From Desulfuromonadales bacterium (GTDB lineage: Bacteria > Desulfobacterota > Desulfuromonadia > Desulfuromonadales > BM103), in assembly GCA_030145205.1 (NCBI GenBank), contig JAQYVZ010000014.1, positions 1 to 64,000 of the forward strand: DNA of 64,000 nt. The letters run 5' to 3'. The notes under the pieces are model-generated. The model searched no databases. It saw only the letters and a list, made by a program, of their open reading frames with translations, and had not been told where the DNA came from. The translations under genes were made by a program, and so were the position numbers. Positions within the stretch are counted from its first letter, which is position 1. The number at the start of each line of letters is the position of its first letter. This document shows positions 19,017 through 23,363 of the stretch, piece by piece.

Positions 19017-20225
19017 CTATCCACATCGTGGATTTTCAATCGAACATGAACAACCGATAATCGCATCCATGGCCTCGATATCTTCAGCATTATCAACAAA
19101 ACTCTCTATATCTTCACCCATTTGTGCAAGCACTTTTAGGAAGTTTAACGTTAAATCCGGATTTAACTGTGTTCCGGAGTTATTTAACAACAAACCACTG
19201 GTTTTTGAAAAATCCCAGGAATTTTTGTAGGTCCGTCGCGTTCTCAAAGCGTCAAAAACATCAGAAATCATTGTCATCTGACTACAGATATTGAGTTGCC
19301 AGCCGGCTGGTACTTTCGGGTACCCGCCCATGTCATACCGGATATGATGCTCAAAGGCGCTAAAAACGGCCAATTTCGGGACCCCTTCCTGGTTCATCAG
19401 GTATTGGGCTCCTCGATGAGGGTGCTGTTGAATCATTTCGAACTCATCTTGATCTAATTTCCCGGCTTTGTTCAGGACCTCCCGATCAACAAATATCTTG
19501 CCGACATCGTGCAGCATGCCGGCAAGACCGAGATCGTGCAGCATCTGACCCTCGATTCCCAGAGACACCCCCTGCGCGATATTCAAAATTCCCACATTCA
19601 CAGAATGGGTAAAGGTATACTCATCCATCTCTCGGAGAGGTACCAGCGCCAGGAACGGGTTGATGTTTTGCCTGAAGGCTTTAATAAAACCTGCAACCAG
19701 TGAGGACATCTGAGTGATATCCAATACGCCCTGTTCAGCGACATGATCGAATTGCTCATGGAGCCCTTTTTTCTCCTCGTCCGACAAGTCTTCAAAGGAC
19801 GAAATGGCGCGGACATTCTCATCTGAGGGGGCCTCGACCCCGCCCACTTGGATATAACTGGTCATCAGTCGCAAAGACTCAATCGAATCCTTGCCAAGTA
19901 GAACCTTGACCAACTGCTGAAGTTCATTAACGGTGAACCCTTCGGAAAATCTGATAAAGCCGACATTCTGGTCTGCGCAGTATCTCAACAGTTTCTCTAG
20001 GTTCGGGGTTTTGGCCAGAGGTTTGCCCTGGAAAAGAAGTTCATCCTCGACCCTGGCCAGGAGAAGTTCAGTCTCTTTGCTTTGGTAAACCCGGAACGTA
20101 TCGGTCAGTCTGGCAAAATGCTCGATGACACGTTGATGGCCCGGCGAATAGAGAGACGCCGCCGATAATGCGCTGGTCAGGTTTCGGATGATTTCCTGGA
20201 TCATTCCAAGCTTAGTAATTTGCAC
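19017..20225 (-). CDS. HD-GYP domain protein, putative c-di-GMP phosphodiesterase
   Basis: The 402-residue product has an HD-GYP domain at about residues 195-340. Metal ligands and motifs are all visible: His207, HD at 239-240, His268/270, HH at 293-294, GYP at 301-303 and Asp322. It should therefore be able to hydrolyse c-di-GMP. Residues 8-112 form a separate helical/beta domain that resembles the N-terminus of the HEAT protein encoded just upstream. The start is a GTG two bases after the stop of that gene, with GGAG 8 bases before it, so translation is coupled. The C-terminus is Cys-containing (GCSCSIENPRCG). The gene is AT-rich relative to acnA. Confidence 0.88.
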   Translation of the reverse strand: MQITKLGMIQEIIRNLTSALSAASLYSPGHQRVIEHFARLTDTFRVYQSKETELLLARVEDELLFQGKPLAKTPNLEKLLRYCADQNVGFIRFSEGFTVNELQQLVKVLLGKDSIESLRLMTSYIQVGGVEAPSDENVRAISSFEDLSDEEKKGLHEQFDHVAEQGVLDITQMSSLVAGFIKAFRQNINPFLALVPLREMDEYTFTHSVNVGILNIAQGVSLGIEGQMLHDLGLAGMLHDVGKIFVDREVLNKAGKLDQDEFEMIQQHPHRGAQYLMNQEGVPKLAVFSAFEHHIRYDMGGYPKVPAGWQLNICSQMTMISDVFDALRTRRTYKNSWDFSKTSGLLLNNSGTQLNPDLTLNFLKVLAQMGEDIESFVDNAEDIEAMDAIIGCSCSIENPRCG

Positions 20226-20227
20226 GG

Positions 20228-22384
20228 CTATGACTCCATTCGTTGTTGCAGTTTTTCAAGTCTGGCCTTGAGATCTGCATTCTTGCTTGGAGTAAACGTG
20301 TGGAGTGCCGGGAGAAGCAGGTCTGGATCGTAACGGTTTAACACCCTGAAAATTTCCTCTTTTAATTGCTCATGCTGCTTCTGCTGCAGGATGTTTCTCG
20401 ATCCCAGGATTTCGAAGAAAATCGGCAATGATGATTTTGGGAAAGTTTCTGAAAGTGTCTTGATAAGCGCCTTTTTCTGGTCGAGACGGTAATTCAACGC
20501 TGACTTCTGTCGTAGCAAGTTGACCAACCGGTTGAACACTTCCGGGTGTTTGGCCATGGACGCCAAAGGGATCGCCGTGTCGACCGTTTTCAAATCCTTA
20601 TGATCCAACATTTGGAGGAGATTTTCGATTGAGTCCTTGCAGCCGTAATGGAGACAGGCCTTGATTGCTTCTGTCCGGACTTTAGGGTGTGAGTGCATCG
20701 TCAAAGGTTTGATGTGTGGCATCGCCTCGCGATCCTGAAGATTCCGAAGAATATGAATAATATTTCTGATGAAATACCATCGCGGATCACCCAGATGTTT
20801 CGACGCAGTGGCAATGACGACCTTTGAATCAAGTAGCTGTAGAAGCTTGAGGTAGAAATACCTGTTTGACCGGTTTACATCTGTAGCCAACACTTCGAGT
20901 AGTGGCGCAATAAACGGAGAGCCGACGGTTATCACAAGAGCTTCAATCTCTTTGAACTTACTTTTTCCATAAATTTCAACGCCTGACAGCACACGTTGTG
21001 TACATTCTTCTGAAGCAATCAAATGTTTAAATCGCTGGAAGTTTTCTGCCTGGGTGTTTTGGCGATCAAGAAGTTCATAGAGATCGTTGAGCGCGCCAAA
21101 AGCACCTTCATTGAGGTAGACGTAGACGATATTGACCAGGTTCTCACCGAGTCCCTTCAGATAGTTTTCATCAGGAGACTCATTGAGAATCTTTATAATG
21201 ATGTCAGCCGCGTGTTTTTCTTGCTGGGTGTCCTCAAGGGAGGTTTTCAACGTCAGCAGGTTGTCGCTTACCTGCTTCGAAATATTGTCATGTTGGATGA
21301 TGTTGAGGAGTGTGTGACGGTATTTTTCAGGGACGTATTTTTCAAAGTCATCTTTTTTGAACAGCTTCTCCAGATCGGATTTTCTTTCTGCAAGTTTTTG
21401 GTCAATCTTTCCAAGATGCTCAATGTGGAGGTTTTTGTCCTGTGCGATTTTTCCAAGAATTCGCATGATGACCGGGGGTGCAAAGTTACTCTCTTTCGCG
21501 GAATGTTCGAGCAAATCGACAATGATTTCGTCAGTCAAGCCAGAAAAGAATTCTTCTGAAAAGGCGGGTTTCATGTTGAGACTGAAAATATGACTAAACA
21601 GGCGCTCTCTGATTTCGGGTGAAATGCGATTGATGAATTCTGTCAGTTTCGCCAATGCCCGATTGCGATAGTGGTTGATTTTTTCAAATTGCAACGATGC
21701 CAGGAAGCTGCTCAACCCCTTGCTGAACTTCTGCTGGTTGGCCAGGGACATCTTGGTCAGGATCTTGTTTGTGAGTTCAGCCAGGCTGTCCGGGCTGGTA
21801 TTCTCATCATTTGCCCCTGCTGCATTCACACTCGCTGTGAGTTCGCGATATATCGCAAACGCAAACCGGTCCCACAGCGTTGATTTCTCTCGCAAAAGCT
21901 GGTTGCGATCTACTGCGTCGATATCATTGACATAGGCAATATCACTTTCCGACATTTCACGTACGGCGATCATTGAGATCTCGCGCATGTTCAGAGAGGA
22001 GACAATCCCCCCTTCTTCCCAGGTTTCAGCCGGAGGACGTCCGGTTAATGTCAGGAATGTTTGGATATCTTTAGTCGACAGATCCCGGTTGAAGGTTATT
22101 GTGCTGATCCCATGTTGGAAAAGTTGATAGGCGAACGTTGTGAATGCTTTGTTGGACTGCTCAATAAACTCTTCGTCGTAGATGAATGCGTGGCGACCGA
22201 CAGTGAGAGGCAACGTTTCATGATACAGAAAATAGGATTCGAAGAAACCTTGTAACCTCGATGTCGCAAGGTCTATCTGCTTGTTTGCGGCACCATAAAG
22301 TTTCAAATGTTTCGAGATCAACAAACATGTGTTGAGAATGTTTTTGACCAGTGCAATTTCTTTATTTTTATCACCCAGAAGCAT
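20228..22384 (-). CDS. large HEAT-repeat protein of unknown function, partner of the HD-GYP protein
   Basis: The 718-residue product has no signal peptide and no enzyme motif I can see. Residues 12-115 look like the N-terminal domain of the HD-GYP protein encoded next: LKLYGAANKQ here against SLYSPGHQRV there, and HGISTITFNRDLSTKDIQTF against NVGFIRFSEGFTVNELQQL. The middle is long and helical. Residues 480-680 are HEAT-like, for example HPKVRTEAIKACLHYG. It is probably a scaffold that binds partners in c-di-GMP signalling. The start ATG has GAGGT 5 bases upstream. The gene is AT-rich. I know similar arrangements in Geobacter relatives, but not a defined function. Confidence 0.75.
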   Translation of the reverse strand: MLLGDKNKEIALVKNILNTCLLISKHLKLYGAANKQIDLATSRLQGFFESYFLYHETLPLTVGRHAFIYDEEFIEQSNKAFTTFAYQLFQHGISTITFNRDLSTKDIQTFLTLTGRPPAETWEEGGIVSSLNMREISMIAVREMSESDIAYVNDIDAVDRNQLLREKSTLWDRFAFAIYRELTASVNAAGANDENTSPDSLAELTNKILTKMSLANQQKFSKGLSSFLASLQFEKINHYRNRALAKLTEFINRISPEIRERLFSHIFSLNMKPAFSEEFFSGLTDEIIVDLLEHSAKESNFAPPVIMRILGKIAQDKNLHIEHLGKIDQKLAERKSDLEKLFKKDDFEKYVPEKYRHTLLNIIQHDNISKQVSDNLLTLKTSLEDTQQEKHAADIIIKILNESPDENYLKGLGENLVNIVYVYLNEGAFGALNDLYELLDRQNTQAENFQRFKHLIASEECTQRVLSGVEIYGKSKFKEIEALVITVGSPFIAPLLEVLATDVNRSNRYFYLKLLQLLDSKVVIATASKHLGDPRWYFIRNIIHILRNLQDREAMPHIKPLTMHSHPKVRTEAIKACLHYGCKDSIENLLQMLDHKDLKTVDTAIPLASMAKHPEVFNRLVNLLRQKSALNYRLDQKKALIKTLSETFPKSSLPIFFEILGSRNILQQKQHEQLKEEIFRVLNRYDPDLLLPALHTFTPSKNADLKARLEKLQQRMES

Positions 22385-22448: not shown

Positions 22449-23363
22449 TTACTCCTTAACTTTCAATAGCCGGATGCTCACTCTGCTTCGGTTGCCCCCG
22501 TCCTTCTGACACTCGGACAGGTATTTGTGACAATGTTCAATCACATTGGTGTAATTGTCGTCATTTCTCAGACAGTGCCCCCCGGCTGAAAAGGTCCCTG
22601 AAATTGTTGCGCCTCCAAGAGGGAAGCTGCTTTTTGCAAAGAGAAGCCGCATTTTTTCACAGGTCGAATCCAGCAGATTGTCGGTTACGTTTCTAAAGAT
22701 ACCGAGGAAGCACCCTTCGTCAATGCGGGCAATCAGGTCAAGTGGGCGGGAATTGTGAGCCAAGGTTTGGCTGGCAATAGTTTGAAATTGGTCAAACGCC
22801 TTTCGCCCATGCGCTTTAATAAACAGGTCGATGTTGTCAATTTTGAAAATAGCGACCCCGACCTTTAGTGGGTATCTCTGCATTTCTTTCAATGACTGCT
22901 CAATCTGCTCACGCGCATATTTCGCATTCGCCAATCGGGTCAAAGGATCGACTAAGGCCAACTCTTCAAGCTCGGCAAGCCTTTCTGCAATGGCGCCCGT
23001 TGGCGTGTTGTCCTTGAAAAGTTCAGAAGCTCCATGGACGCGTCCTGTAGAATCGCATAAGGGAGAGACGCGGACGTTGATTGGTACGCGAAAACCATCT
23101 TTATGCTTCAAGAAGATCTCGTCTTCATGTTTGCACCGATGTGAGATGGCCCAGGTGAGAGGACAACCGTCACTGCACAGGTCATTGCCCTCCTTGTCCA
23201 CGTGTTTAAGCGGGCCGTCATAGCAATAGGTGCCAACCAGTTCTTCAGCTGTGTATCCTGTGATTTCCTCGGCAGCATTATTCCAATAAGTAATTTTGCG
23301 CTCACAGGTCACTGTATAGAGGCCGTCAAACAAACTGTCCAGTACTTGTTTTTGATCACTCAT
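22449..23363 (-). CDS. PAS protein with a degenerate GGDEF domain
   Basis: The 304-residue product has a PAS domain (residues 5-115: ITYWNNAAEEITGYTAEELVG, then a Cys-rich loop) followed by a GGDEF-fold domain from about 130. The entry motif DPLTRLANAKYAREQ is clear. The active site is not: where active enzymes have R-x-GGDEF, this reads RIDEGCF. The upstream metal-binding aspartate region is also altered (IFKIDNIDLFIKAHG). It is probably catalytically dead and acts as a receptor or regulatory partner. It is followed by the HEAT and HD-GYP genes on the same strand, 64 bases away. Confidence 0.85.
   Translation of the reverse strand: MSDQKQVLDSLFDGLYTVTCERKITYWNNAAEEITGYTAEELVGTYCYDGPLKHVDKEGNDLCSDGCPLTWAISHRCKHEDEIFLKHKDGFRVPINVRVSPLCDSTGRVHGASELFKDNTPTGAIAERLAELEELALVDPLTRLANAKYAREQIEQSLKEMQRYPLKVGVAIFKIDNIDLFIKAHGRKAFDQFQTIASQTLAHNSRPLDLIARIDEGCFLGIFRNVTDNLLDSTCEKMRLLFAKSSFPLGGATISGTFSAGGHCLRNDDNYTNVIEHCHKYLSECQKDGGNRSRVSIRLLKVKE

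What the first reader, a model, noticed from the sequence alone, without database searches (positions are those of the whole stretch)
19017..22384. HD-GYP protein and HEAT-repeat protein share an N-terminal domain and are translationally coupled
Seen: residues 8-112 of the HD-GYP protein and 12-115 of the 718-residue HEAT protein show the same pattern (a helix ending in LY, paired strands, a GI-x-I/F-x-F strand, then an ELQ/DIQ helix). The HD-GYP start is two bases after the HEAT stop. Inference: both proteins use this shared domain to bind one another or a common partner, so the HEAT protein may be a scaffold or inhibitor of the phosphodiesterase. I know of no described function for such a pair.
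Basis: partly seen in the sequence, partly recalled or inferred. Interest (0 to 1): 0.6.

Follow-up and report, generated by a model that had tools for sequence, protein, structure and literature searches.

The report
Conserved HEAT-scaffold and phosphodiesterase gene pair
Two abutting genes, one for a HEAT-repeat scaffold and one for an enzyme that probably breaks down cyclic-dinucleotide signals, share an undescribed N-terminal domain and have stayed together, in the same order, across two bacterial phyla, so they probably act as one unit of still unknown function.

Summary
The N-termini of the 718-aa HEAT protein and the 402-aa HD-GYP protein are homologous (profile-profile E 1.7e-14; 14 control segment pairs >=0.026). 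AlphaFold models give the same element order. The domain matches no Pfam family and no PDB relative was found by sequence or Foldseek. The pair is an evolutionary unit: 199 distinct pairs were collected from Desulfuromonadales, other families of the phylum and Nitrospirota. HEAT is upstream in 199 of 200 adjacencies, and the downstream domain starts within 60 nt of the upstream stop in 195 of 199. Flanking genes are not conserved. HD-GYP catalytic residues are invariant (219/219), so the enzyme is probably active. The host genome has a second pair and one lone HD-GYP with the domain. Elsewhere the domain is fused to HEAT with GGDEF, AAA ATPase, cNMP-binding or PilZ domains. Most likely the two proteins form a co-translated complex, joined through the shared domains, in which HEAT scaffolds or controls a cyclic-dinucleotide phosphodiesterase. 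Binding and the sign of control are inferred; coevolution analysis was inconclusive. No open-access paper found describes the pair.

The parts
20228..22384 (-). HEAT-repeat protein gene, 718 aa
   Evidence: ORF; PF13646 HEAT_2 42.6 bits against cut-off 27.7; relatives in 129/136 genomes of the order
21956..22378 (-). Shared N-terminal domain of the HEAT protein (residues ~3-143): helix-helix-strand-strand-helix-strand-helix-helix-strand
   Evidence: hhalign to HD-GYP N-term E 1.7e-14; AF2 pLDDT mostly 93-97 in this part
21065..21907 (-). All-helical middle part of the HEAT protein (residues ~160-440), after a flexible linker at ~150-160
   Evidence: AF2, lower and uneven confidence; no Pfam match
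20234..21010 (-). HEAT solenoid (residues ~459-717)
   Evidence: AF2 pLDDT about 96 through most of it; Foldseek best matches are PP2A scaffold subunits and other HEAT/ARM proteins
20223..20237 (-). Coupling junction: GGAG, HEAT stop TAG (20230-20228), CC, HD-GYP start GTG (20225-20223)
   Evidence: sequence; conserved overlap or abutment in 184/199 pairs
19017..20225 (-). HD-GYP protein gene, 402 aa, GTG start
   Evidence: PF13487 HD_5 57.8 bits against cut-off 27.2; PDB match 4mcw E 1.9e-25
19839..20213 (-). Shared N-terminal domain of the HD-GYP protein (residues ~5-129)
   Evidence: hhalign; AF2 pLDDT 94.3, pTM 0.87; no credible Pfam, PDB-sequence or Foldseek relative
19113..19628 (-). HD-GYP catalytic domain (residues ~200-371) with H207, H239-D240, K243, H268, H293-H294, G301-Y302-P303, D325
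   Evidence: alignment to PmGH 4mcw; residues invariant in 219 distinct family members, D322 in 218
22449..23363 (-). PAS-GGDEF gene with degenerate GGDEF motif, 64 nt upstream of HEAT; probable third member of the operon in the closest relatives only
   Evidence: Pfam; orthologues directly upstream of the pair in L127 (71% id) and L125 (54%), not found in L124 and L126

Best explanation
The two genes encode one heteromeric signalling unit. The HEAT protein is made first; ribosomes ending its gene re-initiate on the HD-GYP gene, so the two subunits appear together and in fixed ratio (inferred from conserved overlaps). They join through their homologous N-terminal domains, which pair with each other (inferred). 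The HD-GYP domain, whose catalytic residues are intact, hydrolyses c-di-GMP or a related cyclic dinucleotide such as cGAMP (inferred from family). The HEAT solenoid, on a flexible linker, is the scaffold that places the enzyme at a target or controls its activity through the N-domain, which stands where other HD-GYP proteins carry PAS or GAF domains (inferred). Shown here: homology of the N-domains, conserved pairing, order and close spacing, intact catalytic residues. Not shown: binding, substrate, sign of control.
For: Homologous N-domains with the same predicted element order. In the host genome the domain occurs in only five ORFs: two HEAT/HD-GYP pairs and one lone HD-GYP. 95 of 99 long HEAT hits in the order have the HD-GYP directly downstream. 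199 distinct pairs; order HEAT then HD-GYP in 199 of 200 adjacencies. Neighbours are not conserved (HEAT 80/80 loci, HD-GYP 73/80, next cluster 14/80). The two proteins diverge together (Spearman 0.87, shuffles about 0). Pairs also in Nitrospirota: 92 of 119 domain hits in same-strand doublets. Proteins with two tandem copies (GGDEF-AAA-N-N-HEAT) fit a domain that works in pairs. Short overlaps couple translation and are enriched among subunits of heteromeric complexes (PMC10666635). Catalytic residues invariant.
Against: Lone HD-GYP proteins with the domain exist (C313 in the host genome), so the domain can work without an adjacent HEAT partner. Residue coevolution between the two N-domains (194-259 pairs, Neff 156-207) did not separate contact signal from shared ancestry. 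-4 overlaps are the commonest spacing between co-directional genes in general, so one overlap alone means little. No complex could be modelled. No experiment on any member was found.
Confidence: 0.55

Rival explanations
1. Common-partner model: the two N-domains do not bind each other but the same third molecule or receptor site (a small ligand, a membrane or polar protein), so HEAT and HD-GYP are co-recruited and the HEAT protein is an output or competitor rather than a subunit.
For: The domain also occurs in proteins without a paired partner (lone HD-GYP; N-HEAT-cNMP-PilZ), and in HD-GYP it sits where sensory PAS/GAF domains sit (domain order).
Against: The near-absolute one-to-one pairing, gene order and co-divergence are more than co-recruitment requires. 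No invariant polar motif is visible: only one Tyr reaches 90% conservation in 145 domains.
Confidence: 0.2
2. Effector model: the HEAT protein is the local target of the signal. The HD-GYP enzyme drains cyclic dinucleotide next to the HEAT protein, which is released or engaged accordingly; the HEAT protein does not regulate the enzyme.
For: The same N-HEAT unit is fused to PilZ and cNMP-binding domains or to GGDEF-AAA elsewhere, so HEAT proteins of this type can be effectors or synthesis partners in cyclic-nucleotide signalling.
Against: The window HEAT protein has no recognisable nucleotide-binding domain.
Confidence: 0.15
3. Plain operon partners: the N-domain was spread by ancient duplication and the genes stay together only for co-expression; the proteins do not touch.
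For: Operons and -4 overlaps are common in bacteria in general (PMC10666635).
Against: Gene neighbourhoods around the pair are otherwise not conserved while the pair persists over two phyla and several paralogous types.
Confidence: 0.1

Closest known systems
PmGH (GAF-HD-GYP of Persephonella marina, PDB 4mcw/4mdz) and other HD-GYP phosphodiesterases
   Same: HD-GYP catalytic domain with conserved His/Asp ligands, lysine and GYP; N-terminal input domain, then the catalytic domain
   Different: The input domain is not recognisable as GAF or PAS; PmGH's Glu four residues before the first His is Tyr203 here, and HHE is HHI; tied to a separate HEAT protein
DvhD (PAS-HD-GYP c-di-GMP receptor of Desulfovibrio vulgaris, PMC13090378)
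   Same: HD-GYP protein of a sulfate reducer whose N-terminal stalk transmits the state of the HD-GYP domain
   Different: DvhD lacks crucial metal ligands and is a receptor; here all ligands are invariant, so an enzyme is predicted; no HEAT partner was noted in the passages read
PP2A core (PR65/A HEAT scaffold with a metal-dependent phosphatase)
   Same: Possible analogy only: a HEAT solenoid holding a metal-dependent phosphoesterase; PR65 chains are among the best Foldseek matches to the HEAT model
   Different: Low TM-scores and generic solenoid similarity; no homology claimed; bacterial HD-GYP enzyme; the shared N-domain has no PDB relative found

Membership tests
HD-GYP phosphodiesterase | HD_5/HD-GYP profile above curated cut-off | tested here: met
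   PF13487 57.8 bits against 27.2; 4mcw E 1.9e-25
HD-GYP phosphodiesterase | Metal-ligand residues, lysine and GYP motif | tested here: met
   H207, H239, D240, K243, H268, H293, H294, GYP 301-303 and D325 in 219/219 distinct members, D322 218/219. The residue after HH is Ile in the window protein, not the consensus Glu; I do not count that Glu as defining
HD-GYP phosphodiesterase | Hydrolysis of c-di-GMP or cGAMP | not testable with these tools
   needs enzyme assay
HEAT-repeat protein | HEAT profile above cut-off and helical solenoid | tested here: met
   PF13646 42.6 bits against 27.7, found in 22/22 aligned relatives; AF2 solenoid 459-717
GAF/PAS input domain | Shared N-domain matches a known sensor family | tested here: inconclusive
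   No Pfam family matches more than 1 of 33 members, none credibly; Foldseek best E 0.19, GAF-type chains among the top rows at TM about 0.2; VIA best Z 5.0
PADLOC anti-phage defence proteins | Match to a defence-system model | tested here: inconclusive
   Only weak matches: HEAT-ARM_XIII E 4.6e-4 to the repeat part and Cas10 E 0.008 to the HD part

The most novel reading that the evidence does not exclude
The shared N-domain is an undescribed pairing domain, possibly of a new fold, that assembles HEAT scaffolds with cyclic-dinucleotide enzymes. The HEAT/HD-GYP pair would be the main member of a signalling system widespread in Desulfobacterota and Nitrospirota, with GGDEF-AAA-N-N-HEAT and N-HEAT-cNMP-PilZ proteins as the synthesis and output arms of the same design.
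Probability: 0.35. Interest if true: 0.75.

Novelty: new variant of a known kind. Interest (0 to 1): 0.58.

Why it matters
HD-GYP enzymes are usually read as single proteins with their own sensor domain; here the conserved unit is two proteins. In Geobacter and relatives, cyclic dinucleotides affect surface life and extracellular electron transfer, yet a pair found in most genomes of the order appears undescribed in the open literature searched. It gives a defined target (one operon, one unnamed domain) for asking how phosphodiesterases are held local, and it links HEAT scaffolds, rarely discussed in bacterial signalling, to c-di-GMP.

Tried and rejected
Mean-field and pseudolikelihood DCA between the two N-domains: top inter-protein scores exceed shuffled pairings, but shared ancestry gives that too, and intra-domain top pairs agree poorly between the homologous domains (overlap 14 or 8 of 50, random 9.4 +/- 2.5); not used as evidence. 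Apparent pseudo-symmetric pairs in the list were tested and are not above chance. A natural single-ORF fusion of HEAT and HD-GYP was sought in HD-GYP ORFs over 540 aa; none seen. In-frame pairs that could be folded as one chain were found (L119) but not folded, because the tool returns no coordinates or inter-domain error. Known-fold search for the N-domain: Foldseek PDB best E 0.19, viral none at E <= 0.001, VIA best Z 5.0 on helical bundles; this does not prove a new fold. Defence-system reading: only weak PADLOC matches. Promoter and terminator scan no better than shuffles. Literature searches for HEAT repeat with HD-GYP, Geobacter, GGDEF/PilZ or diguanylate cyclase gave nothing on the pair; one relevant paper on divergent HD-GYP enzymes (PMC7209772) was not held.

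Full report
What is there. The window holds, on the minus strand, a 718-aa HEAT-repeat gene (22384-20228) and a 402-aa HD-GYP gene (20225-19017) two bases further on. A GGAG lies 8 nt before the GTG start, inside the HEAT 3' end. Pfam recognises HEAT_2 in the first and HD_5 in the second; neither N-terminus matches any family.

The shared domain. Profiles of about 30 relatives of each protein were compared: HEAT 1-150 against HD-GYP 1-140 gives Prob 98.3, E 1.7e-14 over 110 columns, while the other 14 combinations of segments give E >= 0.026. AlphaFold2 on the HD-GYP N-domain with 145 relatives gives pLDDT 94.3 and pTM 0.87, with elements H5-25 H31-48 E53-59 E62-65 H74-85 E88-94 H99-109 H115-121 E125-129. 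In the separate model of the HEAT protein the same elements appear in the same order (H3-30 H35-52 E57-62 E72-74 H79-90 E93-99 H104-115 H127-133 E139-143, plus small extra elements). By sequence no credible PDB relative appears; Foldseek's best PDB match has E 0.19 and VIA's best Z is 5.0, on helical bundles.

The pair as a unit. In 136 genomes of the order, HEAT relatives occur in 129 and HD-GYP relatives (E <= 1e-25) in 133. Of 99 long HEAT hits, 95 have an HD-GYP hit directly downstream on the same strand; the loci of at least two of the other four end at a contig edge. From 323 loci I extracted 199 distinct pairs. HEAT precedes HD-GYP in 199 of 200 adjacencies, the exception being an HD-GYP followed by a further HEAT gene, as at a boundary between tandem units. 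The HD-GYP N-domain begins within 60 nt of the HEAT stop in 195 of 199; 184 have an ATG or GTG between -30 and +2, 100 an ATG at exactly -4. In 80 named loci the flanking genes differ, the next most frequent neighbour cluster being in 14. Similarity matrices of the two proteins correlate at 0.87 (shuffles about 0), and the clusters of HEAT and HD-GYP correspond almost one to one. Because linked genes share ancestry, that correlation supports co-inheritance, not contact.

Spread. The host genome contains five ORFs with the domain: the window pair, a second pair (C214, with a 4-bp overlap) and a lone HD-GYP (C313). In an even draw of the phylum 65 of 148 genomes have the domain, and in the phylum of a Nitrospirae relative 46 of 61, with 92 of 119 hits in same-strand doublets. 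Named hosts include Geobacter, Geomonas oryzae, Trichlorobacter thiogenes and Geothermobacter hydrogeniphilus. Other architectures found: GGDEF-AAA-N-N-HEAT, AAA-N-HEAT, N-HEAT-cNMP-PilZ, N-HEAT and N-HD-GYP. In the examples examined the domain was always with HEAT repeats or HD-GYP.

The enzyme. Alignment to PmGH (4mcw) places the metal-site residues at H207, H239-D240, H268, H293-H294 and D322/D325, with K243 and GYP 301-303. These are invariant in 219 distinct family members, except D322 in 218. PmGH's additional Glu before the first His is Tyr203 here, and HHE is HHI. This contrasts with DvhD, which lacks crucial metal ligands and only binds c-di-GMP (PMC13090378). I therefore predict a working phosphodiesterase; whether it prefers c-di-GMP or cGAMP is not decidable here.

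The HEAT protein. After the N-domain come a flexible linker (~150-160), a helical part of lower confidence (~160-440) and a confident HEAT solenoid (459-717). Best Foldseek matches are PP2A scaffold subunits and other HEAT/ARM proteins, with low TM-scores: a generic solenoid.

Mechanism. Short overlaps couple translation and are enriched among genes for subunits of heteromeric complexes (PMC10666635). Combined with the homologous N-domains, the fixed order and the tandem N-N copies in single chains, I judge it most likely that the two proteins assemble co-translationally through their N-domains, the HEAT protein scaffolding or gating the phosphodiesterase. Binding, substrate and sign are inferred. 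A coevolution test was underpowered and is not counted. Rivals are a common third partner, HEAT as local effector, or mere co-expression.

Novelty. Full-text searches of the open library found no description of the pair; subscription papers were not searchable. A review of c-di-GMP sensory inputs does not mention HEAT (PMC8846402). The parts are known families; the shared domain and the two-protein unit appear undescribed: a new variant of a known kind.

Noticed in passing
window 22449-23363 (-): PAS-GGDEF gene 64 nt upstream of the HEAT gene with a degenerate GGDEF motif (RIDEGCF). Orthologues directly upstream of the pair in L127 (RVDDGEF) and L125 (RLDNGLF), so a likely inactive cyclase is part of the operon in the closest relatives.
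   Followed up: partly
L104:1553-5920 (-), also L105-L107: Proteins of about 1430 aa with two tandem copies of the shared domain before HEAT repeats; Pfam on L104 shows an intact-looking GGDEF and an AAA ATPase in front.
   Followed up: partly
L110:984-6053, L112:1315-4173, L111: Shared domain plus HEAT repeats fused to a cyclic-nucleotide-binding domain and a PilZ domain (Pfam on L110 and L112; L111 similar by eye).
   Followed up: partly
L127:5988-8153: In Deltaproteobacteria bacterium IMCC39146 the HEAT gene of the pair is split over two frames, while the HD-GYP gene is open: decay or a sequencing error.
   Followed up: no
L002:2915-3499 (-): A 194-aa protein that looks made of HEAT-like repeats is encoded convergently next to the second HEAT/HD-GYP pair of the host genome.
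   Followed up: no
L003 (G000:C313): Lone HD-GYP protein with the shared domain, preceded by an NtrC-type response regulator instead of a HEAT gene.
   Followed up: partly
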